Source of the DNA: Rubrivivax sp.
Lineage (GTDB): Bacteria; Pseudomonadota; Gammaproteobacteria; Burkholderiales; Burkholderiaceae_C
Length of the DNA stretch: 64,000 nt
NCBI GenBank assembly: GCA_027484825.1
Contig: JAIXSE010000021.1
Location: forward strand, 62,001-126,000
Reading direction: 5' to 3'
Shown here: in pieces, positions 35,168 to 51,649 of the stretch
Layout: each line of letters starts with the position of its first letter
Position numbering within the stretch: position 1 is the stretch's first letter
Position numbers and translations under genes: made by a program
The notes under the pieces: generated by a model
The model's input: the letters and a program-made list of their open reading frames with translations, nothing else
Database searches by the model: none
What the model was told of the DNA's origin: nothing

Positions 35168-35695
35168 GGTGAATCCTTGCGTGAGTGAGAACGCGGCCTT
35201 TTGGCAAGCTCCGCTCCCGCGGTGCGCACAAAGACCTCGCAGCCGGACGCGTACGGGGCCTGTGTTAAGGTGTCGACATGCAAGCGGCTCATGCTGCCTT
35301 GCAAAACCCTCGCACCGTTCGCATCCCTTGTGTGCGGTCTTCGTCCGGTTTTGTCCCGTCTTTGTCCTGAGCGGTCAGACGGCGCATCGAATCCGGGCAC
35401 GGTGCAGGAACTCCCGCCGCCGGGCCCTGAGGTCCGGCACCTCCAGCCGGCCCATGGCCGGCCCCATGCCACGCCAGGCTCCTCCAGTCCGCGCCCCTTG
35501 ACCAGGCCCGCTGGCTGCACCGTGAGCCCCGGCGGGTGCTGGTTTCAGTGAGATGGGGTCAGTGCCCGTCGGCCGCCGTTGAGGCCGCTGGACGCCGCTG
35601 TGCGCCCGACAAAGTGACTCCCTGACGGATGGCGTGATCGCTGCCGCGCTGCGTGCGCCGGCACGGATTCATCCCGCACAGAAGGAGTTTTGGCC
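35168..35695. other. Divergent intergenic region upstream of the betaine transporter
   Basis: 528 bases between the DUF481 and ATP-binding genes. Short open frames exist but have no recognisable protein character or ribosome site. A ribosome site AGGAG lies at its end for the transporter. No promoter could be chosen with confidence; osmotic control would be expected of such a system but no site for it is recognised. Confidence 0.5.
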
Positions 35696-36982
35696 ATGGC
35701 GACAGGCATACTCATCGATCACGTATTCAAGGTCTTCGGCGACGCGCCGGAGCAGGCGGTGGCACTGGCCCGGGAGGGCCTGACCAAACAGGAGATCCTG
35801 GCCCGCACAGGTCAATCCATCGGGGTGTTTGACGCCAGCTTCGAGATTCAGGCGGGAGAGATCTTCGTGATCATGGGGTTGTCGGGGTCCGGCAAGTCAA
35901 CGCTGGTGCGGCTGCTCAACCGCCTGATCGAGCCCAGCGCCGGACGCATCGTGATCAACGGGCAGGACATCAACACCCACTCCCCCCGGCAGCTTCGGGC
36001 GCTGCGACGCAAGGACATCAGCATGGTGTTCCAGTCCTTTGCGCTGATGCCGCACATGACGGTGCGGGACAACACCGCCTTCGGGCTGGAGCTGGCCGGC
36101 GCCGACCGCCAGCATCGTCTGGCGCAGGCCGATCTGGCCCTGGCGCAGGTGGGTCTAGCTGGCTGGGGTCACAAGTACCCCGACGAACTCTCCGGCGGCA
36201 TGCAGCAGCGGGTGGGGCTGGCGCGGGCGCTGGCGTCGGACCCCTCCATCCTGTTGATGGACGAGGCCTTCTCCGCGCTCGATCCCATCATCCGCACCGA
36301 GATGCAGTCGGAACTGCTCCGGCTGCAGCAGGTCAAGCGCCGCACCATCGTCTTCATCTCGCATGACCTGGACGAGGCCATGCGCATCGGCGACCGCATC
36401 GCCATCATGAAGGACGGGCAGGTGGTGCAGGTGGGAACGCCGGATGAGATTCTGCGCAGCCCCGCCGACGATTTTGTGCGCAGCTTCATCCGGGGTGTGG
36501 ATACGGCGGCCGTGTTCAAGGCGGCCGACATTGCCCGGCAGCCGCTCACGCTGGTGGCCGAGCACAGCACCCGCGGTGCCCGCGCCGGGCTCAAGACGCT
36601 GGAGGACCAGGACCGGGAGTTCGCGCATGTGGTCAGCCCGTCCCGGCACTATCTCGGCACTGTCTCCGCCGACAGCCTGCGCGCCGCGCTCGACGGCCAT
36701 GTCGGGCCGCTGGGCTTGCAGCATGCGTTCATCGAGGGCCTGACGCCGATTCCGTCCGAGGCACCGGTGGCCGAGCTGTTCGGGCAGGTGGCGCAGGCAC
36801 CCTGCGGAGTGCCGGTGGTGGATACGGACGGACGATTCCGCGGGGCCATCTCGAGGACCACGCTGCTGAAGTTCCTGGACCGGGACACCCCTCCGATCGA
36901 GCCGCCAACGCGCACGGATGCCGGCGAGCCGGCCCCGATGGCGCTTTCCGCCGCCTCGGCCACAGCCGCCGTTCACCATTGA
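35696..36982 (+). CDS. proV: Glycine betaine/proline ABC transporter ATP-binding subunit
   Basis: 428 residues from ATG 35696 (AGGAG eight bases upstream; a TTG two codons earlier is also open). It has Walker [10 protein letters not shown] at 61-69, signature LSGGMQQR at about 164-171 and Walker [13 protein letters not shown] at about 185-196. The N-terminal insertion with [20 protein letters not shown] and the C-terminal CBS-like pair ([25 protein letters not shown]..; [23 protein letters not shown]) are typical of ProV/OpuAA. The CBS part may sense ionic strength. It is followed 16 bases later by the fused permease/binding protein. Confidence 0.93.
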
Positions 36983-36998
36983 TCGCCAAGGAGGTCTG

Positions 36999-39278
36999 AT
37001 GCATTCCACCGTTCTCACTGCCTGGGCCGCCCAGCCTGCTTCGGCCGCTGCAGTCGCTTCAACCGCTTCGGCAGCTTCGGCCATTTCAGCACGTGCGTCG
37101 GCTTCTGTGCCTGCGCCCGCGGCGCTCGACCCCTGGGAGGCGATCTCCCAGGCGCCGGACCCATCCGCCACCGCTGCCTGGCTGGACTCGCCAGCGCAGG
37201 CGGCCGCCGCTGCAGACCCTCACACCGCAGCCGCCGCCGGCCATGGCCTGGCGGACACCCTGCAGCAGCTGTTCAGCGGCTCGCTGCCCATCGAGGCCTG
37301 GATCAACACCGGCCTGGGCTGGGCCGTCGCGCATGGGCGTCCGTACTTCCAGACGCTGCGCCTGCCCATCGACGCGACGCTCGACGCGGTGCAGGGACTG
37401 CTGACGTTTCTGCCCCCGATGGCCATGATCGCGCTCATCGGACTGCTGGCCTGGCAGTTCGTGGGGCGCCGGCTGGCCATCGGCACCGTCATCGCCCTGG
37501 CCCTGGTCGCGATGCTGGGCATCTGGCCGGAGGCGATGGTGACGTTGTCGCTGGTGCTCACCTCCCTGGTTTTCTGTCTGCTGGTGGGCCTTCCACTGGG
37601 CGTGTTGCTGGCCAGCAGCGAACGGGCGGAGCGGCTGATGCGACCGGTGCTGGATGCCATGCAGACGACACCGGCATTCGTCTATCTGGTGCCGGTGGTG
37701 ATGCTGTTTGGCATCGGCAACGTGCCCGGTGTCATCGTCACGATTGTGTTTGCCCTGGCGCCGCTGGCACGGCTGACCAATCTGGGCTTGCGGCAGGTGC
37801 GGTCCGATCTGGTCGAGGCGGCCCGCGCCTACGGTGCGTCGCCGTGGCAGATGCTGTGGAAGGTCAAACTGCCGCTGGCCATGCCGTCCATCATGGCCGG
37901 CATCAATCAGGCGCTGATGCTGTCGCTGTCGATGGTGGTCATCGCGTCGATGATTGCGGTGGGGGGCCTTGGGCAGATGGTGCTGCGCGGCATTGGCCGT
38001 CTGGATATGGGGCTGGCCACGGTGGGCGGCATTGGCATCGTGATCCTGGCCATTACGCTGGATCGGCTCACCCAGGCGCTGGGCCAGCCGGCACGCGCGG
38101 CCGGTCGGCATTGGTGGCAGCGCGGGCCGATCGGGCTGGTCCGCGCCGGCCTGAAGCTCTTGCTGCCGGTCACGCTGGTGGGCGCCAGTGCCATCGCCGC
38201 AGCGCAGGCACCGTCGGCGCCCCAGACGCCCCAGACGCCCCGAACGCCCCTGACGCCGGCCCAAGTACAAACGCAGACCCAGACCGGCGCAATCGCCGGA
38301 CCTGCAAGCAAGGCAGAGGCGCCTGCATCGACGCTGCCCGGCAAAGGCATCACCGTTCAACCGCTCAAAAGCTCACTGGCCGAGGAAGCCTTCCAGACGC
38401 TGCTGGTCTCCCGTGCGCTGGAGAAGCTGGGCTACACCGTGCTGCCGATGAAGGATCTGGAGCCCGCCACCGAGCATCTGGCGATTGCCAACGGCGACGC
38501 CACCTTCATGGCCAGTCACTGGCGCCTGCTGCATCAAGACTTCTACCGCAACAGCGGAGGCGATGCGCGACTGGTGCGCTTCGGCCCCTATGCACAAGGC
38601 GCGGTCCAGGGCTACCTGATCGACCGCAAGACGGCCCAGGCCCACCACATCACCCGTCTGGACCAGCTTCGTGACCCGGCCATCGCCCGCCTGTTCGACA
38701 CCGACGGCGACGGCCGCGCCGACCTGACCGGCTGCAATCCCGGCTGGGGTTGCGAGGGCGCCATCGAGCATCATCTGGATGCCTACCAACTTCGCAGCAC
38801 GGTGACCCATCGCCAGGGCAGCTACACCGCCTTGATGGCCGACACCCTTTCGCGCTTCAAGCAGGGCAAGCCCATCCTCTACTACACCTGGACGCCGTAC
38901 TGGGTCAGTGCGGTGCTCAGGCCGGGGGCGGAGGTGGTGTGGCTGCAGGTGCCGTTCTCCGCGGCCAAGGACGGCACGACGGACACGCAGCAAGCCAACG
39001 GCAAGAACTACGGCTTTGCCGCGGACCAGCAGGAGATCGTCGCCAACCGCGACTTCATCCAGCGCAACCCGGCCGCGGCGACACTGTTCGAGGTGATGCG
39101 TCTGCCGATCTCCGACATCAATGCGCAGAACCTGCGGATGAATGAAGGGGCCGCATCGGAGCGTGACATCGCACGCCACACGGACGGCTGGATTCGTGTC
39201 CATCAAGCCCTGTTTGACAGCTGGCTTGCGCAGGCGCGGCGCAGCGCGGCCGCCCCCGCCTTGCCGGCTCAGCGCTGA
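36999..39278 (+). CDS. Fused betaine ABC permease and substrate-binding protein (ProW-ProX)
   Basis: 759 residues from ATG 36999 with GGAGG just upstream. Residues ~1-130 are Ala-rich, ending in the ProW-like [16 protein letters not shown]. The permease domain at ~133-360 ([65 protein letters not shown]) is the conserved ProW coupling region. A Pro/Thr/Gln-rich linker at ~395-445 leads to a ProX-type binding domain (~447-745: [52 protein letters not shown]). The membrane topology must place the C-terminal binding domain outside. The 3' end overlaps the convergent regulator gene by ten bases. Confidence 0.88.
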
Positions 39279-40060
39279 CCGCCGTCCTCCAGCTTGCGGG
39301 CATACACCGCCAGCACAATGCGCTCGGAGTGGACCAGGTATTCGTTCAGCCGCGCCGAGGCCTTGGCGAAGTCTCCGGCCTCGGCCAGATCCAGAATCTC
39401 CCGGTTCATGTCTACATAGGGCGCATGCAGGAATTCCGCATCCCGCAGCAGCCCGAAGGCCAGCCGCAGTTCCGCCAGCACCTGCGCGAACAGTGTGTTG
39501 AGCCGTTCACTGTCGGCCAGTTCCACGATGCCCATGTGGAAGGCCATGTTGGCGGTGCCCACGGCCACCCAGTCGGCCCGGTCCCGGGCTTGGAGCGCCT
39601 GCTCCACCGCCTGGCGCATGTGCTTTTTCGCCGGATGCCGCGGGTAGGCCTGCGCCAGCGCCTGGCATTCGATCAAGCGCCGTACGCGGTAGATGTCGAT
39701 GATGGCGGCCATGCTGGGCACCGACACAAACACCCCGCGATTGGGTTCATGCCGCAGCAGGCCGTCCTTGGTGAGCCCCCGGAACACCTCCCGCAGCGTG
39801 TTGCGGGAGATGCCCAGTTGCTCCGCCAGCGCCTGCTCTGACAGGCGTTGACCGGGCGCGAATGCGCCGGCCGTGAGCATCTGGCGAAGCTGCTCGGACA
39901 CCCGGTCGGTCAGAGGCTGGGTGCCTGGCGGCGGGGCGGCGTCCGTGGCCACAGCAATGGCGTGGGCGGCTGCAGGGGCCGCGGGGGCAGTGGGGGCAGT
40001 GGGGGCTGGCGAGGGCGCGGGGCGCGCAGGGGCTGAGCGACGGGATTTTGGCGTGGGCAT
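39269..40060 (-). CDS. GntR-family (FCD/FadR-like) transcriptional regulator
   Basis: 263 residues. After an Ala/Pro-rich N-terminus of about 50 residues, a winged helix ([60 protein letters not shown]) leads to an FCD ligand domain ([17 protein letters not shown]..; D..FH at about 160; [22 protein letters not shown]). It is transcribed divergently from the 5-oxoproline operon, with a perfect palindrome between them, so it probably represses that operon until its ligand appears. The start is uncertain. Confidence 0.88.
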
Positions 40061-40154: not shown

Positions 40155-40173
40155 TGGATTGTTCAACAATCCA
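40155..40173. promoter_or_regulatory. Palindromic GntR-type operator
   Basis: TGGATTGTT-C-AACAATCCA is a perfect 9-1-9 palindrome of the T-x-G-T-x-x-A-C-x-A kind bound by FCD-type GntR regulators. It lies 95 bases before the regulator's start and 62 bases before the first transporter gene of the 5-oxoproline operon. Confidence 0.75.
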
Positions 40174-40234: not shown

Positions 40235-40996
40235 ATGACCCCCGATCCCTCCCTCTGGCCCCTGCTCGGGGTGGCCGTGATCATCCTGGGCTTTGTGCTG
40301 CGCTTCAATCCGCTGGTGGTGGTGGCGCTCACCGCTGTTGTGACCGCGGTCGCGGCCGGGTTTCCGGTGCAGAAGGTGCTGGCCACGCTGGGCACCGGCT
40401 TCATCAAGACGCGCAACCTGCCGCTGATCCTGCTCTTGCCGCTGGCCGTGATCGGCCTGCTGGAGCGGCATGGACTGCGGCAACATGCGCAGCAGTGGAT
40501 TGCACGCTTCCAGTCGGCCACGGCCGGGCGCCTGCTCATCGTCTACCTGGCCGCCCGGCAGTTGACCGCAGCCATCGGCCTGACCAGCCTGGGTGGGCAT
40601 CCGCAGATGGTGCGGCCGCTGCTGGCCCCGATGGCGGAGGGCGCGACCGAAGCGCGCCTGGGGCCGCTGCCCGATCGCATCCGCCACCGCCTGCGCGCCT
40701 ATGCCGCCGCCACCGACAACGTCGGGCTCTTTTTCGGGGAAGACATCTTCGTGGCCTTCGGCGCCGTGGTGCTGATGACCACCTTTCTTCATGAGGCCGG
40801 CATCGACGTGGAGCCCCTCCATGTGGCGCTGTGGGGTCTGCCGACCGGCATCTCGGCCTTCCTGATCCATGCCTGGCGTCTGCGCCGGCTGGATGCGTCC
40901 CTCAAGCGCGAATTGGACCAGCCGCGGCCAGCGGTGGAGACGGCAGCCTCCGGCAGCTCGGCCGGCATCGTGATCCCCGGCAGCAAGGAGTCCTGA
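40235..40996 (+). CDS. 5-oxoproline transporter, DUF969 subunit
   Basis: 253 residues from ATG 40235 (GGAG upstream at 40220-40223). About six hydrophobic segments with VVVVALTAVVTAVAAGFPVQKVLATLGTGFIKTRNLPLILLLPLAVIGLLERHGLRQHAQQWI. DUF969 proteins occur next to DUF979 and 5-oxoprolinase genes and are regarded as subunits of a 5-oxoproline uptake system. The stop is two bases before the DUF979 start. Confidence 0.85.
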   Translation: MTPDPSLWPLLGVAVIILGFVLRFNPLVVVALTAVVTAVAAGFPVQKVLATLGTGFIKTRNLPLILLLPLAVIGLLERHGLRQHAQQWIARFQSATAGRLLIVYLAARQLTAAIGLTSLGGHPQMVRPLLAPMAEGATEARLGPLPDRIRHRLRAYAAATDNVGLFFGEDIFVAFGAVVLMTTFLHEAGIDVEPLHVALWGLPTGISAFLIHAWRLRRLDASLKRELDQPRPAVETAASGSSAGIVIPGSKES

Positions 40997-40997
40997 C

Positions 40998-41954
40998 ATG
41001 ACGCTCTCCCTGGATCTGCTCTTCACCCTGGCCGGCCTGCTGCTGGCGGCCGTGGCGGTGATGACGCTGCTGGACGGCAGCCACCCCAAGCGCTGGACCA
41101 CCGGGCTCTTCTGGGGCCTGTATGCGGTGATGTTCCTGGCGGGCCATCTCGTGCCGCCGGAATGGGTGGGCGCCGGCGTGCTGTTGATGGCCCTGCTGGT
41201 GGGGCTGCGCGGCGTCGGGCCGGGCCAGCTTCAGTTGCCTTCCGCAGCGGCATGCGCCGCCAGTGCGCGTCGTCTGGGTCATCAGCTGTTCGTGCCGGCC
41301 CTGGCCATTCCGCTGCTCACCATGGCGGGCACGCTGTCGGCCAAGCATCTGATCGTGGGCGGCCTGCCGTTGATCGATCCCAAGAATGCAACCCTCGTCA
41401 GTCTGGGCCTGTCCTGCGTCATTGCATTGGGCCTGGCCTGCTGGCTCACCCGGGAGACGCCGGTGCAGGGCGTGCGCGAGGCCCGTCGCCTGATCGACGC
41501 CCTGGGCTGGGCCCTGGTGCTGCCGCAGATGCTCGGCATGCTGGGGCTGGTGTTCTCGGATGCGGGCGTGGGCAAGGCGGTGGCGCATGTCACCACCAGC
41601 ACCATCAACATGGACTTCCGTTTTGTGGCGGTCACCGTGTATGTGGTGGGCATGGCGCTGTTCACCGTCATCATGGGCAACGGCTTTGCGGCTTTCCCGG
41701 TGATGACGGGCGGTGTGGGCGTGCCGGTGCTGGTGGGCGTCTACCATGGCGACCCCGCGGTGATGGCCGCCATTGGCATGCTCTCCGGCTACTGCGGCAC
41801 GCTGATGACGCCGATGGCCGCCAACTTCAACATCGTGCCTGCGGCCCTGCTGGAATTGCCCGACAAGAATGCGGTGATCCGCGTGCAGGTGCCCACCGCG
41901 CTGATCTTGCTCGCGGTGAATGTGGTGCTGCTTAACCTGCTCATGTTCCACTAG
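40998..41954 (+). CDS. 5-oxoproline transporter, DUF979 subunit
   Basis: 318 residues with about nine membrane segments. NGFAAFPVMTGGVGVPVLVGVYHGDPAVMAAIGMLSGYCGTLMTPMAANFNIVPAALLELPDKNAVIRVQVPTA is the conserved core of DUF979 proteins. Paired with the DUF969 protein immediately upstream and followed by PxpA, it is the second part of the proposed 5-oxoproline transporter. Confidence 0.87.
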   Translation: MTLSLDLLFTLAGLLLAAVAVMTLLDGSHPKRWTTGLFWGLYAVMFLAGHLVPPEWVGAGVLLMALLVGLRGVGPGQLQLPSAAACAASARRLGHQLFVPALAIPLLTMAGTLSAKHLIVGGLPLIDPKNATLVSLGLSCVIALGLACWLTRETPVQGVREARRLIDALGWALVLPQMLGMLGLVFSDAGVGKAVAHVTTSTINMDFRFVAVTVYVVGMALFTVIMGNGFAAFPVMTGGVGVPVLVGVYHGDPAVMAAIGMLSGYCGTLMTPMAANFNIVPAALLELPDKNAVIRVQVPTALILLAVNVVLLNLLMFH

Positions 41955-41968
41955 AGAGGCCCTGACCC

Positions 41969-42733
41969 ATGAACATCGACCTGAACAGTGATCTCGGCGA
42001 AAGCTTCGGCGCCTGGCGCATGGGCGACGACGCCGCCATGCTGGCGGTGGTCAGCAGCGCCAATGTGGCCTGCGGCTTTCATGCGGGGGACCCGGCCGGC
42101 ATTTTGTCGACCCTGCGCGCGGCCGCATCTCGCGGAGTGAGCGTCGGGGCCCACGTGTCCTATCCGGACCTGGTGGGTTTTGGACGGCGCAACATGGACA
42201 TGGCCAGCGCCGATCTGCAGGCCAGCGTCATCTACCAGATCGGCGCCTTGCAAGGGCTGGCTGCCGCCGCCGGCACGCGGGTACGTTACGTCAAGCCACA
42301 CGGCGCGCTCTACAACTTCATCGCCCATGACGCGCGCCAGGCCGCCGATGTGATGGCTGCGGTGAAAGCGGTCGACGCGTCGCTGGGCCTGGTGGTGCTG
42401 GCCGGTTCCGCGTTGGCGGGCTGGGCGCGAGAGGCCGGACTGCGCACCGTGGAGGAAGCCTTCGCCGACCGCGGCTACCGGGCCGACGGCAGCCTGGTGC
42501 CGCGCAACCAGCCAGGCGCAGTGCTGCATGACCCCGAAGCGGTTGCCGAGCGCATGCTGCAACTGGCGAGGGACGGCACCGTCACGGCGGTGGATGGCAG
42601 CGTGGTGCGGGTGCGGGCGGAGTCCATCTGCGTTCATGGCGACAGCCCCGGCGCAGTGGCCATGGCACAGCGGGTGCGAGAACGGCTGACCGCGGAGGGT
42701 ATTCGCATCGCGGCCTTCATGGACCTTGCATGA
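41969..42733 (+). CDS. pxpA: 5-oxoprolinase subunit PxpA
   Basis: 254 residues of the LamB/YcsF family. [42 protein letters not shown] is diagnostic, with [13 protein letters not shown] and VKPHGALYN following. PxpA works with PxpB and PxpC to hydrolyse 5-oxoproline to glutamate with ATP. The stop overlaps the next start (ATGA), so the PxpBC fusion is translationally coupled. Confidence 0.95.
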
Positions 42734-44568
42734 GCACGCCGCCCGTCAATGGCGCCATGCGCCTGCTGCCCGCCGGGGACGCGGTGCTGGTGGAGCTGGC
42801 CGACCTGTCGCAGACGCTGGCGCTGCTGGCCTCGCTGCGGGCGGATCCGATCCCGGGCGTGACGGAGATCGTGCCCGGGGCGCGCACGCTGCTGCTCATC
42901 CTCGATGCTGAGCGTCTGCTGCGCGACGCAGTGCCTGAAGAGGGCGGCGACAGTCTGACAGTTGGACAGGCCGAGAGGCACACCGAAGGGCCGCTTCAGG
43001 CGCCGCGTGAAAGCTTGGCGCAACCAGTGGCGCAACCAGTGGCGCAACCAGTGGCGCAACCCGTGGCGCAATCAGTGATCCAAGCCGTGTCGCGAGCGCT
43101 CGCCGGACGGTCGCTGGTGCCGGTTGAGAGCGCTGCCGGCGCCTGTGTCGAGATCCCGGTGCATTACGACGGTGAAGACCTGGCCGAGGTGGCCGCTCTG
43201 CTTCAGATCACGCCGCAGGACGTCGTTCGCCGCCACACCGGCAGCGATTGGTTTGTCGCCTTCACCGGCTTCGCTCCCGGCTTTGCCTATCTGACCGGTG
43301 GGGACGAGCTGCTGCGCACGCTGCCCCGTCGCAGTTCTCCGCGCACCCGAATCCCAGCGGGCGCCGTGGCAGCCGCTGGCGGGTTCAGCGGCGTGTATCC
43401 GAAGGCCAGCCCGGGCGGCTGGCAGTTGCTGGGCCAAACGCTGACGCCGATGTGGGATGTGCAGCGCGACCCGCCCGCGCTGCTGCAACCTGGGCAGCGG
43501 GTGCGATTCGTGGATGCCGGGCCCCGCGCGGCGTTGGTGGGCCGTGGCGAAGTCGGCCAGCCCGACATCGCCCGCGTCGATATCACCCCTGCCGTTATCG
43601 CCAGCACGCAGGGCCCTCGGGCTGATGTCGTTGAGGCTGCAGCCGACGTGGCAGCCGCTGCCATCGAGATCGCCCAGCCGGGTCTGCAAGCGCTGCTGCA
43701 GGACCTGGGCCGTCCTGGACAAGCCGGGCAGGGCGTGTCCGCCTCCGGCGCGATGGACCGACGCTCGCTCAAGGCCGCCAATCGCCTGGTCGGCAATCCG
43801 GAAGACGAGGCCTGCATGGAGGTGTTGCTCGGCGGCTTCGAGGTGATCAGCCATGGCGACCTGGTCGTGGCCGTCACCGGTGCGCAAGGTCCGCTCCAAC
43901 TGATCGGGCCCGATGGGCGCAGCCACAGCGTTGACCGTCACACGCCGCTGGCCCTGTCACAGGGAGACCGGCTGCGACTGGGGGCTCCCATTGCCGGTGT
44001 CCGCAGCTATGTGTCGGTGCGTGGGGGAGTGGCCATCCCAGCGGTGCTGGGCAGCCGGTCCTACGACGCCCTGGCAGACGTGGGCCCCGCCCCCCTCAAG
44101 GCCGAAGACCGCCTGACGATTCGGCCCATCCGCCACGCCGCCGTGGTGGGACATCCCGAAGCAGCCTGGGCTCAATTCCCCCGGCCCGGCGACGAGGTGC
44201 AGATCGATCTGTGCCTGGGCCCCCGCGCGGACTGGTTCACCCAGGAAGCGCTGACCACGCTGGTGTCCCAGCCCTGGACGGTCACCCCGCAATCCAACCG
44301 CGTCGGCCTTCGGCTGCAAGGCGACACCGCCCTGACCCGAGCGGTGAACTCCGAGCTCCCCAGCGAAGGCACGCCGCTGGGGGCCCTGCAGGTGCCCGCC
44401 AACGGCCAGCCGGTGCTGTTCCTGGCCGACCATCCGCTGACGGGCGGTTATCCCGTCATCGCCTGCGTGGCGCCCTGGCACCTGGACCTCGCCGGTCAGC
44501 TGCCGGTGGGCGTGCGGCTGCGTTTCCGGGTGGTGCGCGGCTTCGAGCCGCTGACCGTCCCAGCATGA
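42730..44568 (+). CDS. pxpBC: Fused 5-oxoprolinase subunits PxpB and PxpC
   Basis: 612 residues. The PxpB/KipI part spans about 1-290 ([41 protein letters not shown]; then [58 protein letters not shown]). The PxpC/KipA part spans about 310-612 ([13 protein letters not shown] [35 protein letters not shown]). An insertion between the halves of PxpB (about residues 78-125) contains a five-unit AQPV repeat. Both domains resemble the carboxyltransferase part of urea carboxylase, which matters because a biotin carboxylase gene follows. Confidence 0.93.
43016..43075. repeat. 12-base tandem repeat inside pxpBC
   Basis: Five units of TGGCGCAACCAG, the first three nearly exact, encode A-Q-P-V repeats at residues ~96-116. 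The unit keeps the frame. It occupies a surface linker between two parts of the PxpB fold. Confidence 0.85.
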
Positions 44569-44583
44569 ATCCGAGGTGAGTCC

Positions 44584-46404
44584 ATGCCCATCAAGAAAGT
44601 TCTGATCGCCAACCGGGGCGAGATTGCTGTGCGCATCATCCGCGCCTGTGCCGACTACGGCGTGCGCTCCGTTGCGGTGTATGCGGACCCGGACCTCCAT
44701 GCCCTGCATGCCGGCCTGGCGGATGAAGCCTACGGTCTGGACGGGCATCGTCCCGCCGACACGTATTTGTCCATCGACAAGCTGCTGGCTGCGGCCCGTC
44801 GCAGCGGCGCGGACGCGGTCCATCCCGGCTACGGCTTCCTGTCGGAGAACGCTGCCTTCGCCCGTGCGGTGCTGGACGCCGGCCTCACCTGGATCGGCCC
44901 GCCGCCGTCCGCCATCGAGCAACTGGGGGACAAGGTGTCCGCCCGGCGCCTGGCGATGGAGGCCGGAGCACCGCTGGTGGCCGGATCACCCGGGCCGGTG
45001 GACAACGCCGACCAGGTGCTGGCCTTCGCCCGGCAGCATGGCCTGCCGATTGCGATCAAGGCGGCCTTTGGGGGCGGTGGCCGCGGCATGAAGGTGGTGT
45101 GGAAGCTGGAGGACGTGGCCGAGCAGTTCGACTCCGCCGTCCGGGAAGCCACCGCCGCATTCGGTCGCGGCGAGTGCTTCGTGGAGCAGTTCCTGGACCG
45201 GCCCCGCCATGTGGAGGCGCAGGTGATGGCCGACAGCCAGGGCCAGGTGGTGGTGCTGGGCACGCGGGACTGCTCGCTGCAACGCCGCAACCAGAAGCTG
45301 GTGGAAGAGGCGCCCGCACCGTTCCTGACGGACGAGCAGCGCGAGCGCATCCACCGTGCTGCCCGGGATGTCTGCCGACGTGCGGGCTACGTCGGGGCGG
45401 GCACGGTGGAGTTCCTGCTCAGCAGCACCGGTGCGATCTCTTTCCTGGAGGTCAACACGCGGCTGCAGGTCGAGCATCCGGTCACCGAAGAGACCTGCGG
45501 CCTGGACTTGGTGGTGGAGCAGCTGCGCATTGCTGACGGGCTGCCCCTCACGCTGACCGAAACGCCGGTGCCGCGCGGTCATGCCATCGAATTCCGCATC
45601 AATGCGGAGGATGTGGGACGCGGCTTCCTTCCGGCGCCGGGTCCGGTGACCGTGTTTGAGGCGCCCTCGGGGCCGGGGGTGCGGGTGGACACGGGCGTGG
45701 TGTCGGGCTCGGTCGTGCCTGCGGCGTTTGATTCGTTGATGGCCAAGCTCATCGTCACCGGCGCCACGCGGGAACAAGCCCTTGCCCGGGCCCGTCGCGC
45801 GCTGGCCGAGTTCCGGATCGAAGGCGTTCCCACCGTGCTGCCGTTCCATCGTGAGGTGCTGCGCCATGCCGACTTCACGGCCAGCGACGGCTTCAAGGTG
45901 CATACGCGCTGGATCGAGACCGACTTCGCCTCAGCGCTGGCGGCCGCCACGCGGGTGGAGCCGGTGGCGCAGGCGCCGCTACGGCAGTGGACGATCGAGC
46001 TGGACGGCAGGCGTGTTCGCCTGGGCTTGCCGGCGGATCTGCTGAGCGGGCTGGCGGCGGGGGCTTCGGCTGTCGGCGGCGCTGGTGTGCAGGGAGGAAC
46101 TGGCGGGACTTGCGACCCAAGCGGGTCCGGCCTGTCCACGGCGTCCGGCGAAGGCAGGTCCGGCGACTCCGGCGCCACCGATGCGGCGCACGACCCCTCA
46201 GCGGTCGAGGCCCCCATGAGTGGCCTGCTGCAAGCCTGGAAGGTCGAGGACGATGCGCAGGTCGAGGCGGGGCAGCTCATCGCCGTGCTCGAGGCGATGA
46301 AGATGGAGACGCAGGTGCTGGCGCATCGCGCTGGCCGCGTGACCCACCTGGCGGAGGCAGGCGCTCCGGTGTCGGCAGGCAGCCCACTCGCGCGGATTGC
46401 CTGA
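44584..46404 (+). CDS. Biotin carboxylase fused to BCCP
   Basis: 606 residues. The biotin carboxylase domain (1 to about 450) shows [17 protein letters not shown], the Gly-rich ATP loop FGGGGRGMK, and the catalytic [14 protein letters not shown]. After a Gly/Ser/Ala-rich linker (about 490-540) a biotin carrier domain ends the protein, with biotinyl Lys573 in [11 protein letters not shown]. It is like the alpha subunit of acyl-CoA carboxylases but shorter, and no carboxyltransferase subunit gene lies nearby. It follows pxpBC by 15 bases in the same operon. A role with PxpBC, analogous to urea carboxylase, is proposed; a role in acyl-CoA carboxylation is the alternative. Confidence 0.92.
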
Positions 46405-46409
46405 GGGGT

Positions 46410-47528
46410 TTAGAGCGTCCTCAAGAAGGCCTCCAGGTCCTGCAATTCGCGGGCATTGAGCTGGATCGGCCGGATGAGCGGCGACGGCGGAATGGCCATG
46501 AGTCCCTGGGCATTCTTGGGAGGCTGGGGCATGCCGGCGTTGTAGCTCTCGAGGACACCGCGCAGCGTCGGCGTGATGCCGTTGTGGAAGTAGGGCGCGG
46601 TGCGGGCAATGCCCCGCAGCGACGGCGTGCGGAACGCCCCCGCATCCTCGGGCCGTCCGGTCGTCCCCTGGCGCCCCAGGTCTTGCAGACGGCGCCCCAG
46701 TGCGCTCATGCCGATCTGGTGGAACTCATGCTGGGTGAACTGTGGGCCGCTGTGGCAGTTCATGCAGCGGGCCTTGGTGCGGAACAGATGCAGTCCGCGG
46801 ATCTCCTGGTCGCTCAAGGCGGCCGTTTGACCTTCGATGAAGTCGTCAAAGCGGGTGCGCGGGGCTTCAATGCGGCGCTCGAACGCGGCCAGCGCCTTGC
46901 CCAGTCGGCTCAGCGTGACGGCGTCATCCCCGAACACGTCCTTGAAGCGCCGGGGATAGTCGGTCTCGCGGGCGAGTCGCTGCTGGAGGGCCTGAAGGTC
47001 CATCGCCATCTCCACCGGATTGGCAATCGGCATCAGGGCCTGGCTCTCCAGGTCGGCGGCGCGACCGTCCCACATCAACTGCGGCACAAAGGCCACGCCC
47101 ATCAGATGCGGTGTGTTGCGCGGCCCCGCCTGCGCATCTTGTCCCAGGGCGAGCCGACGGCCGTCGGAGAAGCCGAGGTGAGGCGCATGGCAGCTGGCAC
47201 AGCTGAGGGTTCGATCCCGCGACAGTCGGGGGTCGAAGAACAACTGCTCCCCCAGCGTGACCAGTGTGGCAGGGACAGCCGGCAGCGCCGGACGCGGGCT
47301 GAGTTCCTCCCATCGGACCCCCGCATCCACCTGGGCCGCCGGCCAGCCGCTGCGCGGGCCGCGATAGGCCTGGGTCACGTCGTCGCTGGCTGCCGCACTT
47401 GGCGGGCTGCTCTTCGGGGACGCTCGGCCGCTGGGCCCGATGTCTTCAGCCATGCCCGCGTTCGCGGCCCACAGCAGCCCCGTGGCCAGGGCTGCGCGCA
47501 AGGTCCTGCCCAGACGCTCAGAACTCAT
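46410..47528 (-). CDS. Di-heme cytochrome c peroxidase (MauG/MbnH-like)
   Basis: 372 residues with a signal peptide (LRAALATGLLWAANAGMAE). Two heme c sites: CASCH at 110-114 and CMNCH at 255-259. LGEQLFFDPRLSRD, NTPHLMGVAF..MWDGRAADL and FRTPSLRGIARTAPYFHNG are conserved in the bacterial cytochrome c peroxidase/MauG family. It acts in the periplasm. Its start lies inside the 3' end of the TonB-dependent receptor gene (11-base overlap), so it is co-translated with it. It may oxidise the receptor's ligand or a partner protein rather than just remove peroxide. Confidence 0.9.
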   Translation of the reverse strand: MSSERLGRTLRAALATGLLWAANAGMAEDIGPSGRASPKSSPPSAAASDDVTQAYRGPRSGWPAAQVDAGVRWEELSPRPALPAVPATLVTLGEQLFFDPRLSRDRTLSCASCHAPHLGFSDGRRLALGQDAQAGPRNTPHLMGVAFVPQLMWDGRAADLESQALMPIANPVEMAMDLQALQQRLARETDYPRRFKDVFGDDAVTLSRLGKALAAFERRIEAPRTRFDDFIEGQTAALSDQEIRGLHLFRTKARCMNCHSGPQFTQHEFHQIGMSALGRRLQDLGRQGTTGRPEDAGAFRTPSLRGIARTAPYFHNGITPTLRGVLESYNAGMPQPPKNAQGLMAIPPSPLIRPIQLNARELQDLEAFLRTL

Positions 47529-50508
47529 AACCCACCTCCAGCGCCACGCTGCGACCGCGCTCGTAAGTGGCGTAGGTGTCGCTGACGGTGCTTGTGTTCT
47601 TGCGGTTGGTGAGGTTCTCGAGTGTCAGCTTGACTTGCAGGCGCTGGTCGCCCCGCACCCGCGGTTCCCAATGGATCACCGTATCGATCGCCAGGGAGCG
47701 TGGCAGGTTGGTGCGCTCATAGACATCCACCGTGGTGCCTTGATAGTCGGTCGTGCCGTTCTTCAGCATCTGCTGATAGCGGTCGCGGATGCGCAGCAGG
47801 TGGCTGACCGTGAGGTGGTAGGCCGGCAGGCTGCTCATGGCGCCTATACGCAAGGTCCACGGGCGGTTGTAGTTGTCCGCCGGCATGTCGGAATAGCGGA
47901 TGAACTGGCCGTCGTACTGGATGATGGCGTCGTCGAGTTTGTCGGTGGAATAGGTGTCGCCATAGGTGCTGTAGTTGGACCGCACATCGCTTTTGTTGAC
48001 CGCCAGCCACCAGCGGGTGGCCACCGGACCGGTCTTGAAGGCGGTGGCGCTGGACCAGCTCAAGGTCCAGTCGCGGGTCTTGCTGCGGCCGTCATTGGTG
48101 TAGACGTAGCAGCTGTTGCCGTTGCAGTCGGTCTGTTTGCTGACGATGCGCTTGATGACCTGGTCCTTGCCGTCCCGCTGCGTCACCCGCAGGCTGAGCG
48201 GGCCGCCCAGCCAGGCGGGCGCGAACACCAGACCGGCGGTGAGCTCGTCGTCATAGGGGGTCTTCATTGTCTCCAGGCGATTCAAGGGAAGCGCTTGCGT
48301 GCCGGTGCCCCAGGTCAAGGTGCCGCTGCGGGTCTGGGTGACCAGCAGGGTGTGGATCTTTTCCTGCAAGGCGTAGGCAAACAGGCTGCGACCGTAATAG
48401 CGGTTGGCGCCGGCATCGATCAGCCAGGTCGGGTTGGGCTGCCAGCTCAGGGCCATGCGCGGACCCAGATCGAACTGGTCGGTGAGCGTGTCCCGATCCG
48501 CTCGGACACCGGCGCGGAGATTGAAATCGCGCCAGCGGATGTCGTCTTCCACAAAGGCGCTGTAGGACTCGCTCTGCAGCCCGAAACTGCCCGCGTTGTA
48601 CGTCATCAGCCGGGTGAAGTATTGGCCGACCTTGCGGTTGATGCTGGGCGTGGCGGAGCAGGCCTCGGTGTCCTGCGTGCCGTCGGCGCGCTGGCAGCGC
48701 GAGAGGGCGCCGGTGGTGGGGAGGTTGGCTACGGTCAGGTAGTAGCGCTGCGCCTTCAGTCGGTCGTAGCTGGCGTCCTGCCGGCGCAGTTCCACGCCGG
48801 TGGAAACACGGTGCTGCGTCGCGCCGATCGCCACTGCCTGGAAGGCGCCCTTGACCTTGTAGGCCAGCGTCTTGAGGCGCTGGTCGACATCGCCCCATGC
48901 GCCTTCACCGCTGGTGGGCGTGCTGTCGGTGCTGTCGCCCCAGTTCTTGTCGGTGGACCAGCGCCAATTGCGGTAGTAGTCGGCATCGCTGCGACGGGAT
49001 TGGTCGGAGCTGCTGTAGGACAGCTGCTGCGTCAGCAGGACTGGCTCGAACCGTGATTCCCAGCGACCCGAGAGCGTCAGACCTCCGCTTTGCAGGGTGT
49101 AGTCGCTGTTGCGGAAGTTCTCGATGAAATACCGGTTGTCCGACGGCGCGTAGACCAGACTGAGGTCGGCGCGATGGATGCTGCCGGTGGGCTTGAAGTC
49201 GGTCTTGAGCGCCAGGGTGTCCTGACGGCGCTGCTGCGTGACTTCACGGCTTTCGGTGCTGCCGTCGTTGTCCGTGCTGAAACGGCGCAGCGGAATGTCC
49301 GACTGCCGACGCACGGCGCTGAGCAGCACGCCCCATTCCTCGGTGGGGCGCATCTCCAGCGTGGTCTTGTAGGTCCATTTGCGAAAGCGCGGCTGCATGT
49401 CCGCATTGGAAGACGCTTCGAACGCCTCGCGACGGGCCGGATCGATGAAGACGTGGGTCCAGTCCGAGGACGTGTAGCCCACCGCCACACTGCCGCCAAA
49501 GCGCTTGCGCGCGGCGCACAGACGTGCATCCACCACGCCACCGGTGAAGCGGCCATACTCGGCGGAGATGTTGGCGTCCCGCACTTCGATGTCGCACAGG
49601 ATGCTGCTGTCGACTGCCAGCGCCTGCGAAGCGCCTGGGACGAACTCCGGGCTCTCGGTGGTGATCTTGAGGCCCGGGTCCAGGTCATTCATGGCCGAGA
49701 CGCCGTCCAGCAGGATCTGGTTCTGATAGGGCTTGGAGCCGTGGATCGAGATTTCCGCCGGAGCGATTTCGCCGCCGGTGTAAGAGGACAGCTGCGACTC
49801 GCTGTACTGGATGTTCGGGTTGAGTTTGAGTTGGCTGGTCAGGTCCCCGTTGATCGCCGGCAGGTTGCGGATCATGGCGCGGTCGAGGCGGTCCACGGTG
49901 GGCAGAGGTCGGCCTTGCACGGCCACCATGGGCAGGCGCTGCAGTCGCAGCTCGGGCGAGTCTTCATCGTCGGTGATGGCGGTCTGGGAAGACGTCGGCC
50001 GGCGCCGGATCATCACGCCGCCGGCGCTGGACGGCTGGGCCTCAAAAGGCGTTCCGGCCAACAACACCTTCAGGCCCGCCATGACGTCATATTGGCCGTT
50101 CAAGGCCTGGCTGCGAAAGCCGTTCACCGCGGCGGCATCGAACACCAGCACCACCCCGGCCTCTGCAGCGAAACGGTTCAGGGCCTCGGCCAGCGGCGAG
50201 GCGGGCAGATCGTAACGGGGGGCGGGCGCGGTGCGCGGCGCAGCGGATGGCTGACCCGCTGCGGCGCCAGCGGCCTGGGCCGACAGCACGCCGGCGCCCA
50301 GCAGGGCGGCCAGTAGCGGTCGAAGCAGCGGCCGAAGCAGCGTAGAAGGCAGCGTGAGGGGCAGCGTACGGGGCAACGCAAGAAGCGGCGCCAAAGGCAG
50401 CCCGGCAGTCCCTGTGCCGGGCAAGGCTGCGCCGCGTCGCCGCACCGTTGGAGCGCCTGGGCGGGAGGGCAGGTCGGGGCGGGGCAGGGGATGGCGAAGT
50501 CGGTTCAT
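47518..50508 (-). CDS. FecA-type TonB-dependent receptor with signalling domain
   Basis: 996 residues. A long repeat-like leader rich in Leu/Pro/Arg (LPLAPLLALPRTLPLTLPSTLLRPLLRPLLAALLG) precedes the signal cleavage region. An STN signalling domain (about 100-165: LAEALNRFAAEAGVVLVFDAAAVNGFRSQALNGQYDVMAGLKVLLAGT) interacts with the FecR-like protein. Plug (RNLPAINGDLTSQLKLNPNIQYSESQLSSYTGGEIAPAEISIHGSKPYQNQILLDGV) and a barrel ending in GYEF follow. It should import a metal chelate with TonB and signal its presence to the cognate sigma factor. Confidence 0.9.
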   Translation of the reverse strand: MNRLRHPLPRPDLPSRPGAPTVRRRGAALPGTGTAGLPLAPLLALPRTLPLTLPSTLLRPLLRPLLAALLGAGVLSAQAAGAAAGQPSAAPRTAPAPRYDLPASPLAEALNRFAAEAGVVLVFDAAAVNGFRSQALNGQYDVMAGLKVLLAGTPFEAQPSSAGGVMIRRRPTSSQTAITDDEDSPELRLQRLPMVAVQGRPLPTVDRLDRAMIRNLPAINGDLTSQLKLNPNIQYSESQLSSYTGGEIAPAEISIHGSKPYQNQILLDGVSAMNDLDPGLKITTESPEFVPGASQALAVDSSILCDIEVRDANISAEYGRFTGGVVDARLCAARKRFGGSVAVGYTSSDWTHVFIDPARREAFEASSNADMQPRFRKWTYKTTLEMRPTEEWGVLLSAVRRQSDIPLRRFSTDNDGSTESREVTQQRRQDTLALKTDFKPTGSIHRADLSLVYAPSDNRYFIENFRNSDYTLQSGGLTLSGRWESRFEPVLLTQQLSYSSSDQSRRSDADYYRNWRWSTDKNWGDSTDSTPTSGEGAWGDVDQRLKTLAYKVKGAFQAVAIGATQHRVSTGVELRRQDASYDRLKAQRYYLTVANLPTTGALSRCQRADGTQDTEACSATPSINRKVGQYFTRLMTYNAGSFGLQSESYSAFVEDDIRWRDFNLRAGVRADRDTLTDQFDLGPRMALSWQPNPTWLIDAGANRYYGRSLFAYALQEKIHTLLVTQTRSGTLTWGTGTQALPLNRLETMKTPYDDELTAGLVFAPAWLGGPLSLRVTQRDGKDQVIKRIVSKQTDCNGNSCYVYTNDGRSKTRDWTLSWSSATAFKTGPVATRWWLAVNKSDVRSNYSTYGDTYSTDKLDDAIIQYDGQFIRYSDMPADNYNRPWTLRIGAMSSLPAYHLTVSHLLRIRDRYQQMLKNGTTDYQGTTVDVYERTNLPRSLAIDTVIHWEPRVRGDQRLQVKLTLENLTNRKNTSTVSDTYATYERGRSVALEVGYEF

Positions 50509-50556
50509 GGTTCGGTGCGTATCACTGACCCATGAAGGCCGAACGAGACCGGCAAA

Positions 50557-50594
50557 AGGACAACGGACAGGACGGTGGGCGCGAAATTTTTTTG
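50557..50594 (-). promoter_or_regulatory. Possible ECF-sigma promoter of the receptor gene
   Basis: In the 88 bases before the receptor an A-tract with AAATTT and, about 20 bases on, TGTCCT-like motifs appear on the minus strand. FecI-type sigma factors use an A-rich -35 and TGTCC-like -10, but the spacing here is not canonical. Confidence 0.25.
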
Positions 50595-50596
50595 TA

Positions 50597-51649
50597 TCAG
50601 CGCGGCCGCAGCACCAGACCTTGGCCCTGTCGCTCCAGCCGCAGCCCCCATTGATCGGCCACTGTGGCCAGTGAGCGCTGGGGATCGGCGGTCAGGAAGC
50701 TGCCCGAAATCCGTAAGCCGGCGATGGAGGCGTCGCAGGACAAGGGCATGCCCGACTGCACCGACAGCCGCTGCAGGACCTGGGACAGCGGCTGGTCCAT
50801 GGCGACCAGCACGCCGCGGGTCCAGGCCACATCAGCAAAGCCTGCCGGCCCTGCGGCGTCATGGCCACCTTTGAAGAACCGCAGACGCTGGCCGGTGTCG
50901 ACACGGACCGGGACCTGGGTGCCCGTCGGCAGCACCAACACCGCATGCGTCTGCACGGCCACCACCGAGGCGGTGTCTTCTTGCACCAGGGTCAGTCGTG
51001 TCCCCAGCGGCGTCACGTCGCCGTCCCGCGTCCGCACGGTCAGTGGGCGATGGTGGGGATCGGTGCCCGTCTGCAGTTGCATGGCCCCTTGCGACAGATG
51101 CAGCATCCGCCGTGAGGCGCTGTAATCGATGCCCAGACGCGATTCGGGACCCAGCAGCAGATGCCCGCCATCGGGCAGCGTCCACTCGCGGCGTTGCCCT
51201 GCGCCGGTCACGATCCACTCCACGGAGGAGGTCTCGCGCGTCCAGGCACGGTAGAAGAAGCCGCCCATCACCACCGCACCCAGGGCGCCCAGCCCGGTCA
51301 GTGCACGACGGCGGTCCCTCTTGCGCGGCTGATGCTGCGAGGCGCGGGCAAGCGTGTCGCTGCGGTCTGCGGGCTCCATGCCTTCAGTGCGTTCGGTGAG
51401 GTCGCCGCAGTCCATTCGCTCCATACGAGCCGGCATGAGCGACAAGGTCTGCCTCGCCCGGGCCGGTGTCTGCGCCAGCAAGTGCTTCAAGCGCTCCACC
51501 CGATCCCAGGCCTGCCGGTGTTCGGCCGCATCTTCATACCAGCGCTGCCAGCCTTGGCGGTCGGCGTCGCTGGCTGCGGCGCTGCTCAGGCGCAGATGCC
51601 AGTCGGCCGCCTCCGATAGGTGCTTCGGCGTCACAGCTGCATCAGACAC
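50597..51649 (-). CDS. fecR: FecR-family anti-sigma/sigma regulator
   Basis: 350 residues from GTG 51649, which overlaps the sigma factor gene by 19 bases. The N-terminal cytoplasmic part (EAADWHLRLSSAAASDADRQGWQRWYEDAAEHRQAWDRVERL) is the FecR N-domain that binds the sigma factor. One TM (ALTGLGALGAVVMGGFFYRAW) and a periplasmic FecR domain (EWTLPDGGHLLLGPESRLGIDY; VRTRDGDVTPLGTRLTLVQ; LSVQSGMPLSCDASIAGLRISGSF) follow. It relays the receptor's signal across the inner membrane. Confidence 0.93.
   Translation of the reverse strand: MSDAAVTPKHLSEAADWHLRLSSAAASDADRQGWQRWYEDAAEHRQAWDRVERLKHLLAQTPARARQTLSLMPARMERMDCGDLTERTEGMEPADRSDTLARASQHQPRKRDRRRALTGLGALGAVVMGGFFYRAWTRETSSVEWIVTGAGQRREWTLPDGGHLLLGPESRLGIDYSASRRMLHLSQGAMQLQTGTDPHHRPLTVRTRDGDVTPLGTRLTLVQEDTASVVAVQTHAVLVLPTGTQVPVRVDTGQRLRFFKGGHDAAGPAGFADVAWTRGVLVAMDQPLSQVLQRLSVQSGMPLSCDASIAGLRISGSFLTADPQRSLATVADQWGLRLERQGQGLVLRPR

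What the first reader, a model, noticed from the sequence alone, without database searches (positions are those of the whole stretch)
40235..46404. 5-oxoproline operon as a split urea-carboxylase-like biotin enzyme
The operon joins a transporter, PxpA, a PxpB-PxpC fusion and a biotin carboxylase with its own biotin carrier domain, but no acyl-CoA carboxyltransferase. KipI/KipA-like domains (PxpB/PxpC) are homologous to the carboxyltransferase part of urea carboxylase, in which biotin carboxylase, carboxyltransferase and carrier are one chain. The set here thus holds all three functions and could carboxylate the lactam nitrogen of 5-oxoproline before ring opening, a biotin-dependent route not described for the classical ATP-only PxpABC.
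Basis: partly seen in the sequence, partly recalled or inferred. Interest (0 to 1): 0.72.

Follow-up and report, generated by a model that had tools for sequence, protein, structure and literature searches.

The report
Biotin-coupled pyroglutamate utilisation operon
A bacterial operon for using pyroglutamate carries its own biotin enzyme beside the ring-opening enzyme, and comparison with other genomes suggests that the two belong together as an overlooked type of this enzyme that probably opens the ring after adding CO2 through biotin.

Summary
In detail: 40235-46404 encodes DUF969-DUF979 (probable 5-oxoproline transporter), PxpA, a PxpB-PxpC fusion and a biotin carboxylase with carrier domain (Lys573). 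The pairing is not chance: 12 of 12 fused PxpBC among 100 surveyed loci stand beside BC-BCCP, and 74 of the 80 kept BC-BCCP relatives follow PxpBC. The BC is of the AccA3 lineage. MSMEG_0435, on the window's side of the PxpC tree, was solved bound to the AccA3-containing carboxylase of M. smegmatis (PDB 9yx5). The own genome shows no unpaired biotin-dependent acyl-CoA carboxyltransferase. The operator core at 40157 equals the tested site of PxpR, the 5-oxoproline sensor of C. glutamicum.

Best reading: a biotin-coupled PxpABC. BC charges biotin, PxpBC passes CO2 to 5-oxoproline, PxpA opens the ring, CO2 leaves. Pairing and pathway are well supported; carboxylation is inferred. Against a urea-carboxylase copy: its general-base Lys aligns with Arg here, and neither CT nor BC groups with urea carboxylase. 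Some relatives lack a local BC and may borrow one. My library searches found no paper on this, but few hits were opened; 9yx5 is prior evidence for the pairing.

The parts
39269..40060 (-). GntR/FCD regulator, divergent; likely counterpart of C. glutamicum PxpR
   Evidence: PF00392 E 5.4e-18, PF07729 E 1.4e-14; position like pxpR in PMC13274462
40155..40173 (.). Perfect 9+1+9 palindrome TGGATTGTTcAACAATCCA, putative PxpR operator; core GATTGTTCAACAATC at 40157-40171
   Evidence: palindrome; only match in the window with up to 2 mismatches, mean 0.00 in 100 shuffles; same core as the tested PxpR site agattgttcaacaatct
40235..40996 (+). DUF969 protein, half of a probable 5-oxoproline transporter
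   Evidence: C. jejuni cj0552-4 mutant (which also lacks DUF2891) loses use of 5-oxoproline (passage of PMC12795558)
40998..41954 (+). DUF979 protein, other half of the transporter
41969..42733 (+). PxpA (LamB/YcsF), 254 aa; carries V63 typical of this class
42730..44568 (+). PxpB-PxpC fusion, 612 aa, carboxyltransferase-like; PxpB part 42781-43485, PxpC part 43732-44529
43327..43329 (+). Arg200 codon, aligned with general-base Lys1605 of K. lactis urea amidolyase
   Evidence: alignment; the neighbour Arg201 is the alternative
44584..46404 (+). Biotin carboxylase with C-terminal biotin carrier domain, 606 aa, AccA3-type
46204..46398 (+). Biotin carrier (BCCP) domain, residues 541-605
   Evidence: PF00364 E 1.2e-13
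46300..46302 (+). Codon of biotin-accepting Lys573 (EAMKMETQ)

Best explanation
A 5-oxoproline uptake and degradation operon whose 5-oxoprolinase is a biotin-coupled variant of PxpABC. Step 1 (family knowledge, motifs intact): BC uses ATP and bicarbonate to carboxylate biotin on Lys573. Step 2 (inferred): the BCCP domain docks on PxpBC, which acts as carboxyltransferase and passes CO2 to 5-oxoproline, most likely to the ring nitrogen. Step 3 (inferred): N-carboxylation activates the lactam; PxpA hydrolyses the ring, giving N-carboxyglutamate, which loses CO2 to give glutamate. Bicarbonate is thus recycled and ATP pays for ring opening. Expression is released when the GntR regulator binds 5-oxoproline (by analogy with PxpR). 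In Actinobacteria related PxpBC proteins may lack a BC of their own and probably borrow the shared AccA3.
For: Co-occurrence: 12 of 12 fused PxpBC in 100 surveyed loci have BC-BCCP; 74 of 80 kept BC-BCCP loci follow PxpBC. Joint lineage: class III PxpC one clade in the largest tree (97/80), BC with AccA3-type chains at 100/100, PxpA one clade (0.911) with V/I63 in 89 of 90 loci, against P in all 62 aligned class I rows. Physical precedent: 9yx5 holds AccA3, PxpC and PxpB homologues, and MSMEG_0435 falls on the window's side of the tree (100/99). Own genome: only BC without an acyl-CoA partner and only CT_A_B protein. Pathway: exact PxpR operator core; at most 1 mismatch in 34 of 90 class III loci, 0 of 71 class I, 0 of 17 class II, 0 of 90 shuffled class III; transporter; pcp in Eleftheria and a 'putative hydro-lyase' on a Klebsiella plasmid in related operons. 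Other PxpBC lineages stand with BCs of another (AccC-like) lineage. It fits P. putida component A, 64 + 51 kDa, with 5-oxoproline-dependent ATPase (passage of PMC8453981): ten Pseudomonas class III loci give 60.6-62.1 and 55.6-57.6 kDa.
Against: No assay. Urea carboxylase's general base Lys1605 is Arg in 46 of 46 class III and 97% of 71 class I rows, so the chemistry is not simply urea carboxylase's. 71 of 100 surveyed PxpBC loci show no BC in the fetched stretch. C. glutamicum needs pxpTABC for growth on 5-oxoproline; that paper names no biotin carboxylase and cites assumed phosphorylation. Five actinobacterial loci I opened have PxpBC without a BC (Tsukamurella fused and also without PxpA; Nocardia, Nonomuraea, Embleya, Streptomyces); two of those, Nocardia and Nonomuraea, also lack the operator. 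9yx5 shows binding only; it may be regulatory. Class III is not resolved as one clade in trees 87 and 103, nor firmly for BC (78/52). The 51 kDa chain of P. putida fits 56-57 kDa only roughly.
Confidence: 0.7

Rival explanations
1. Classical ATP-only PxpABC does the ring opening by phosphorylating 5-oxoproline; the BC-BCCP protein binds PxpBC but serves control, for example PxpBC tunes a biotin carboxylase or is tuned by it, as KipI (a PxpB homologue) is named for inhibiting a kinase.
For: PMC13274462 cites assumed phosphorylation by PxpB and PxpC and reports no biotin need; 71 of 100 loci show no local BC; 9yx5 is a bound complex whose role is not stated in its title.
Against: BC and biotin motifs are intact; the gene follows PxpBC in 74 of 80 kept loci; BCs of different lineages stand with different PxpBC clades.
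Confidence: 0.17
2. BC-BCCP plus PxpBC carboxylates another amide, lactam or urea-like compound in the same catabolic setting, and PxpA then handles that product; 5-oxoproline is only an inducer or one of several substrates.
For: The homologous carboxyltransferase of urea carboxylase acts on urea; a Tsukamurella locus has the operator and PxpBC without PxpA; a Rhizobium operon adds DUF1989.
Against: Exact operator of a 5-oxoproline sensor, probable 5-oxoproline transporter, PxpA in 90 of 91 class III loci scored, pcp next to the BC gene in Eleftheria.
Confidence: 0.1
3. The BC-BCCP is a stray acyl-CoA carboxylase alpha subunit that pairs with an AccD elsewhere.
For: Its nearest non-pxp relatives are AccA3-type chains with an acyl-CoA carboxyltransferase upstream (6 of 80 loci, all from the Geodermatophilus/Blastococcus group).
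Against: In the own genome the biotin-dependent acyl-CoA carboxyltransferases found have BC partners, and the remaining PF01039 match is biotin-independent malonate decarboxylase beta; 74 of 80 kept loci are with PxpBC.
Confidence: 0.03

Closest known systems
M. smegmatis long-chain acyl-CoA carboxylase with MSMEG_0435-MSMEG_0436 bound (PDB 9yx5)
   Same: AccA3-type BC-BCCP together with PxpC/PxpB homologues; MSMEG_0435 is on the window's side of the PxpC tree
   Different: There AccA3 is part of an acyl-CoA carboxylase; here a dedicated copy is in the oxoprolinase operon. I saw the entry's title and chain names only, no paper.
Classical PxpABC 5-oxoprolinase (E. coli YbgJK, B. subtilis YcsF/KipI/KipA)
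   Same: PxpA, PxpB and PxpC homologues; same pathway by inference
   Different: PxpBC fused and in another clade (YbgK falls with class I); BC-BCCP attached; PxpA V63 instead of P
C. glutamicum pxpTABC with PxpR (PMC13274462; abstract, discussion and passages seen)
   Same: Divergent GntR regulator and identical 15-bp operator core
   Different: Other transporter (PxpT), no BC gene named; whether its PxpBC is of the window's clade was not tested
Urea carboxylase / urea amidolyase (K. lactis, 5i8i, 3va7)
   Different: Functions on separate chains; Lys1605 aligns with Arg; BC and CT of other lineages; PxpA in place of allophanate hydrolase
P. putida 5-oxoprolinase components A and B (older biochemistry, seen only as a passage in PMC8453981)
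   Same: Component A of two chains (64, 51 kDa) with 5-oxoproline-dependent ATPase, component B (82 kDa) for ring opening; masses near BC-BCCP, PxpBC and a PxpA trimer
   Different: No sequence known to me for that enzyme; identity is a guess

Membership tests
PxpABC 5-oxoprolinase | PxpA, PxpB and PxpC homologues in one operon | tested here: met
PxpABC 5-oxoprolinase | NCBIfam equivalog cut-offs for PxpB and PxpC | tested here: not met
   PxpC_5OPro 173.9 against 500, TIGR00370 133 against 145.55; the broader TIGR00724 is met (244.7 against 230.2). PxpA meets the subfamily model NF003814 (379.9 against 226)
[quoted passage not shown]
   needs an assay; operator and transporter point to the substrate
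Urea carboxylase | BC, CT and BCCP in one chain of about 1200 aa | tested here: not met
   three functions on two chains; TIGR02712 far below cut-off for both
Urea carboxylase | General-base Lys in the KYNPART motif | tested here: not met
   Lys in 22 of 22 urea carboxylases compared, Arg200 here
Urea carboxylase | CT domain in the urea carboxylase clade | tested here: not met
Acyl-CoA carboxylase alpha subunit (AccA3 type) | AccA3-lineage BC-BCCP chain | tested here: met
Acyl-CoA carboxylase alpha subunit (AccA3 type) | Acyl-CoA carboxyltransferase partner | tested here: not met
   none in the operon, none found unpaired in a genome 95% complete
Biotin-dependent carboxylases in general | Intact biotin carboxylase motifs and biotinyl-lysine motif | tested here: met
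   (roles of the motifs recalled)
Biotin-dependent carboxylases in general | Carboxyl transfer to an acceptor | not testable with these tools
   acceptor inferred

The most novel reading that the evidence does not exclude
The whole PxpB/PxpC family, also where no BC gene is nearby, is a biotin-dependent carboxyltransferase that borrows a housekeeping biotin carboxylase and carrier; the 'ATP-dependent' prokaryotic 5-oxoprolinase would then be a carboxylation-coupled lactamase in general, and the early enzymology on P. putida 'component A' was done on such a biotin enzyme.
Probability: 0.2. Interest if true: 0.92.

Novelty: new variant of a known kind. Interest (0 to 1): 0.73.

Why it matters
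It would add a new acceptor (a lactam, probably its nitrogen) to biotin-dependent carboxylases, explain how a stable lactam is opened, and give a reason for the M. smegmatis complex 9yx5. It would also correct annotations: such genes appear in these calls as 'acetyl-CoA carboxylase', 'allophanate hydrolase', 'KipI family sensor histidine kinase inhibitor' or 'urea amidolyase'. For example, a Lactiplantibacillus pentosus paper reads an extra BC/BCCP as an acetyl-CoA carboxylase copy useful for lipid synthesis, separately from the pxpB and pxpC it also finds specific to that group (passages of PMC12427679), while a L. plantarum plasmid holds pxpB, pxpC, BCCP and BC in one cluster. The claim is directly testable in soil bacteria.

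Tried and rejected
Rejected: urea-carboxylase descent of the CT or BC; an unpaired acyl-CoA carboxyltransferase in the own genome; the Lys1605 column as support for urea-carboxylase chemistry (class III and class I both have Arg).

Papers: searches of the held library showed no paper on a biotin-coupled PxpABC, but few hits were opened. From 5 and 10 I saw the abstract, discussion and passages of PMC13274462 and passages of PMC8453981, PMC12427679 and PMC7642360, not PMC10448178. The two hits of 17 and the five of 75 were not opened. Of 138 hits of 39 only 20 were listed, and only PMC8453981 was seen. The hits of 9 and 82 (PMC11001197, PMC6327441, PMC4222082) were seen as passages. One search had no hit. 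The 2017 PxpABC paper is not held.

Replaced steps: loci were first read on the wrong strand or frame (and four of five proteins in 35), replaced by 36 and 37. A first PxpB alignment cut the domain short and a second stopped with an error; one search replaced them, and its printed positions are 5 too high.

Limits: the survey is of the own phylum, 299 genomes, 135 with a match; of 107 listed non-urea-carboxylase rows I fetched 100; unlisted rows were not seen. 'No BC' means none in the fetched stretch (about 7 kb each side, or to the contig end). On plasmids I opened 6 of 40 listed records and 4 of 60 listed, by my own choice. L162 (cut contig) was dropped from PxpB, PxpA and operator counts, and one class I row (116 aa) from tree 77. 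Class III was thinned to 31, 35, 16 and 14 rows in trees 77, 78, 87 and 103, and to 46 and 45 rows. Operator sites were the best per locus; not each lies just upstream of the operon (e.g. L165, L178, L232), and one mononucleotide shuffle per locus was the control. Gene starts behind the gaps and the PxpBC masses are rough.
Full report
What is there. The window (62001-126000 of contig C35 of an unnamed 5.66 Mb genome) holds at 40235-46404 five genes on the + strand: DUF969, DUF979, PxpA, a PxpB-PxpC fusion and a biotin carboxylase with a C-terminal biotin carrier. PxpA and PxpBC overlap in ATGA and the BC gene starts 15 bp after PxpBC. A GntR/FCD regulator is divergent (39269-40060). The biotin lysine is residue 573. 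The usual BC motifs are intact (their roles are recalled).

Is the BC gene a partner of PxpBC? (1) Survey. PF02626 was searched in 299 genomes of the phylum; 135 had a match. I fetched 100 of the 107 listed non-urea-carboxylase rows. By protein search 71 have separate PxpB and PxpC and no BC in the stretch (class I); 16 have separate PxpB and PxpC and a BC without carrier domain (class II; a candidate carrier ORF was found in 8 of the 16, and marks one more in L065); one has separate PxpB and PxpC with a BC-BCCP fusion (L102, counted below with class III); 12 have fused PxpBC, each with BC-BCCP (class III, the window's type). Fisher test, fusion against BC: 4.9e-8. (2) Reverse. In 74 of 80 PxpC lies upstream on the same strand (in L162 cut by the contig end), with an estimated gap of -4 to 72 bp in 68 of 74. 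The other 6 (Trujillonella, Geodermatophilus, Blastococcus and kin) have an acyl-CoA carboxyltransferase instead. The 74 span alpha-, beta- and gammaproteobacteria and Actinobacteria. (3) Own genome. Four BC genes: AccC, two acyl-CoA types and the window's. PF01039 matches: one about 1 kb from one BC (PccB/PccA-like), one about 8 kb from another (MccB/MccA-like), AccA and AccD (read by eye), and a malonate decarboxylase beta, biotin-independent. The Pcc and Mcc names are inferred. PxpBC is the only CT_A_B protein. So the window's BC is the only BC without an acyl-CoA partner in a genome 95% complete.

Lineages. In a tree of the CT_A_B domain (115 rows) class III is one clade (97/80), next to a fused PxpBC of a Tsukamurella plasmid, and the two are cut off from the rest at 100/100. 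In two smaller trees Tsukamurella and the Arthrobacter-type class III rows are not resolved. Class II falls in several places; its largest group, with two class I rows, is sister to urea carboxylase plus L117 (100/93). In the BC tree (82 rows) class III BCs group with the AccA3-type acyl-CoA carboxylase chains (100/100), while class III alone is weak (78/52). Class II BCs group with the own genome's AccC (93/82; the only AccC included), and urea carboxylase BCs stand apart. So CT-like PxpBC seems to have been joined to BCs of different origin more than once. PxpA of class III is one clade (0.911, 45 of 45 rows, FastTree). Residue 63 is P in all 62 aligned class I rows and 93% of 15 class II rows, but V or I in 89 of 90 class III loci by motif (exception Cryobacterium L232, P; the motif was found in 44 of 62 class I PxpA, all P).

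Physical precedent. The BC-BCCP matches in the PDB first AccA3 (E 7.4e-219), then 5mlk (1.4e-216), then other BCs (6.6e-140). One AccA3 entry, 9yx5, also holds 'allophanate hydrolase subunit' 1 and 2, the PxpB and PxpC homologues. Its title is 'Structure of the long chain acyl-CoA carboxylase complex from Mycobacterium smegmatis with MSMEG_0435-MSMEG_0436 bound', released 2025-11-26. MSMEG_0435 falls on the window's side of the PxpC tree (100/99), E. coli YbgK with class I and K. lactis urea carboxylase with urea carboxylases. Four further actinobacterial loci without a BC (Nocardia, Nonomuraea, Embleya, Streptomyces) fall at the base of the same side; V63 is present in 3 of the 4 (no motif in the fourth). 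An Arthrobacter plasmid has fused PxpBC with BC-BCCP. Reading: this PxpBC lineage works with AccA3-type BC; some Actinobacteria may share the housekeeping one, while others carry a copy in the operon. That these Actinobacteria have AccA3 is general knowledge, not tested here (one search failed).

Pathway. The GntR-DUF969 spacer has a perfect palindrome, TGGATTGTTcAACAATCCA. Its core GATTGTTCAACAATC is identical to that of the C. glutamicum PxpR site agattgttcaacaatct; mutated or deleted sites gave 6.5-fold higher pxpT reporter output, and PxpR binds 5-oxoproline with a KD of 726 nM (PMC13274462: abstract, discussion and passages). In the window it is the only match with up to 2 mismatches, mean 0.00 in 100 shuffles. 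With at most 1 mismatch it occurs in 34 of 90 class III loci (window included), 0 of 71 class I, 0 of 17 class II (16 of the survey and a L. plantarum plasmid) and 0 of 90 shuffled class III; with at most 2 in 65 of 90, 4 of 71 (2 of 71 shuffled), 0 of 17 and 2 of 90. It is exact at the Tsukamurella PxpBC and with 1 mismatch at Embleya and Streptomyces, but absent at Nocardia and Nonomuraea (best 5 mismatches). So many operons of this type probably answer to 5-oxoproline. DUF969/979 are supported as transporter by a C. jejuni mutant of cj0552-4, which also lacks DUF2891 (passage of PMC12795558). Eleftheria has pyroglutamyl peptidase just after the BC gene; Streptomyces has it beside DUF979. 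A Klebsiella plasmid has a 'putative hydro-lyase' between PxpA and PxpBC, and ORFs of similar place and length lie there in a Pseudomonas and a Pararhizobium locus; that this family includes D-glutamate cyclases is recalled.

Mechanism. Shown by calls: composition, conservation, lineage, an operator match; by a deposited structure: binding of homologous proteins. Inferred: that carboxybiotin is used by PxpBC, that 5-oxoproline is the acceptor, that N is the site, and that PxpA opens the carboxylated ring. The chemistry is plausible because an N-carboxy lactam should be more easily hydrolysed and the product carbamate loses CO2. Against a plain copy of urea carboxylase: K. lactis Lys1605, the likely general base (passages of PMC5770610; located), aligns with Arg200; Arg in 46 of 46 class III and 97% of 71 class I rows, Lys in 22 of 22 urea carboxylases and 11 of 17 class II.

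An old enzyme may be this one. A passage in PMC8453981 says that P. putida 5-oxoprolinase has component A, a hexamer of dimers of 64 and 51 kDa chains with 5-oxoproline-dependent ATPase, and component B of 82 kDa for ring opening. In ten of the eleven Pseudomonas-titled class III loci BC-BCCP is 60.6-62.1 kDa, PxpBC 55.6-57.6 kDa (open frame) and PxpA 26.5-27.4 kDa, three of which make about 81 kDa. Six-by-six assembly is known for biotin-dependent carboxylases (abstract of PMC4673880 in the listing). This is suggestive only. From memory, that group reported a trapped intermediate read as phosphorylated, which would count against; not checked.

Verdict. The idea of a biotin-dependent oxoprolinase is supported as to pairing and pathway, open as to chemistry, and not supported as to urea-carboxylase descent. 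I file it as a new variant of PxpABC. The literature searches cover only the held library and few hits were opened; subscription papers and any paper behind 9yx5 could not be seen.

Noticed in passing
L151 5779-7338 (Tsukamurella plasmid): Fused PxpBC with the exact operator and an MFS transporter but neither PxpA nor BC beside it.
   Followed up: partly
L117 6015-9660: Separate PxpB, PxpC and BC whose PxpC is sister to urea carboxylase; perhaps a split urea carboxylase.
   Followed up: no
class II loci such as L065, L066, L069, L083, L085: A second biotin-linked type: separate BC and short carrier (EVMK motifs), PxpC sister to urea carboxylase; in L065 and L085 PxpB has a urea-carboxylase-like KY..PRT motif. 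May act on another substrate.
   Followed up: partly
L152 5794-12068 (L. plantarum plasmid): pxpB-pxpC-BCCP-BC-hydro-lyase-pxpA-NRAMP on a mobilizable plasmid; similar genes are read as an extra acetyl-CoA carboxylase in PMC12427679.
   Followed up: partly
L150 1-1110 (Klebsiella plasmid): A second biotin-related gene ('biotin/lipoyl-containing protein', BC-like, cut by the stretch) lies beyond an IS1 transposase near the class III operon.
   Followed up: no
window 46410-51649: Next to the operon: a MauG-like di-haem protein, then frames that look like a TonB-dependent receptor and a FecR-like protein (the last two by eye).
   Followed up: no
window 35690-39278: Looks like a glycine-betaine type ABC importer, with permease and binding protein in one 786-aa frame (by eye).
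   Followed up: no
L127 6183-11268: A class I pxpBC locus with an acyl-CoA carboxyltransferase gene about 1.7 kb downstream.
   Followed up: no
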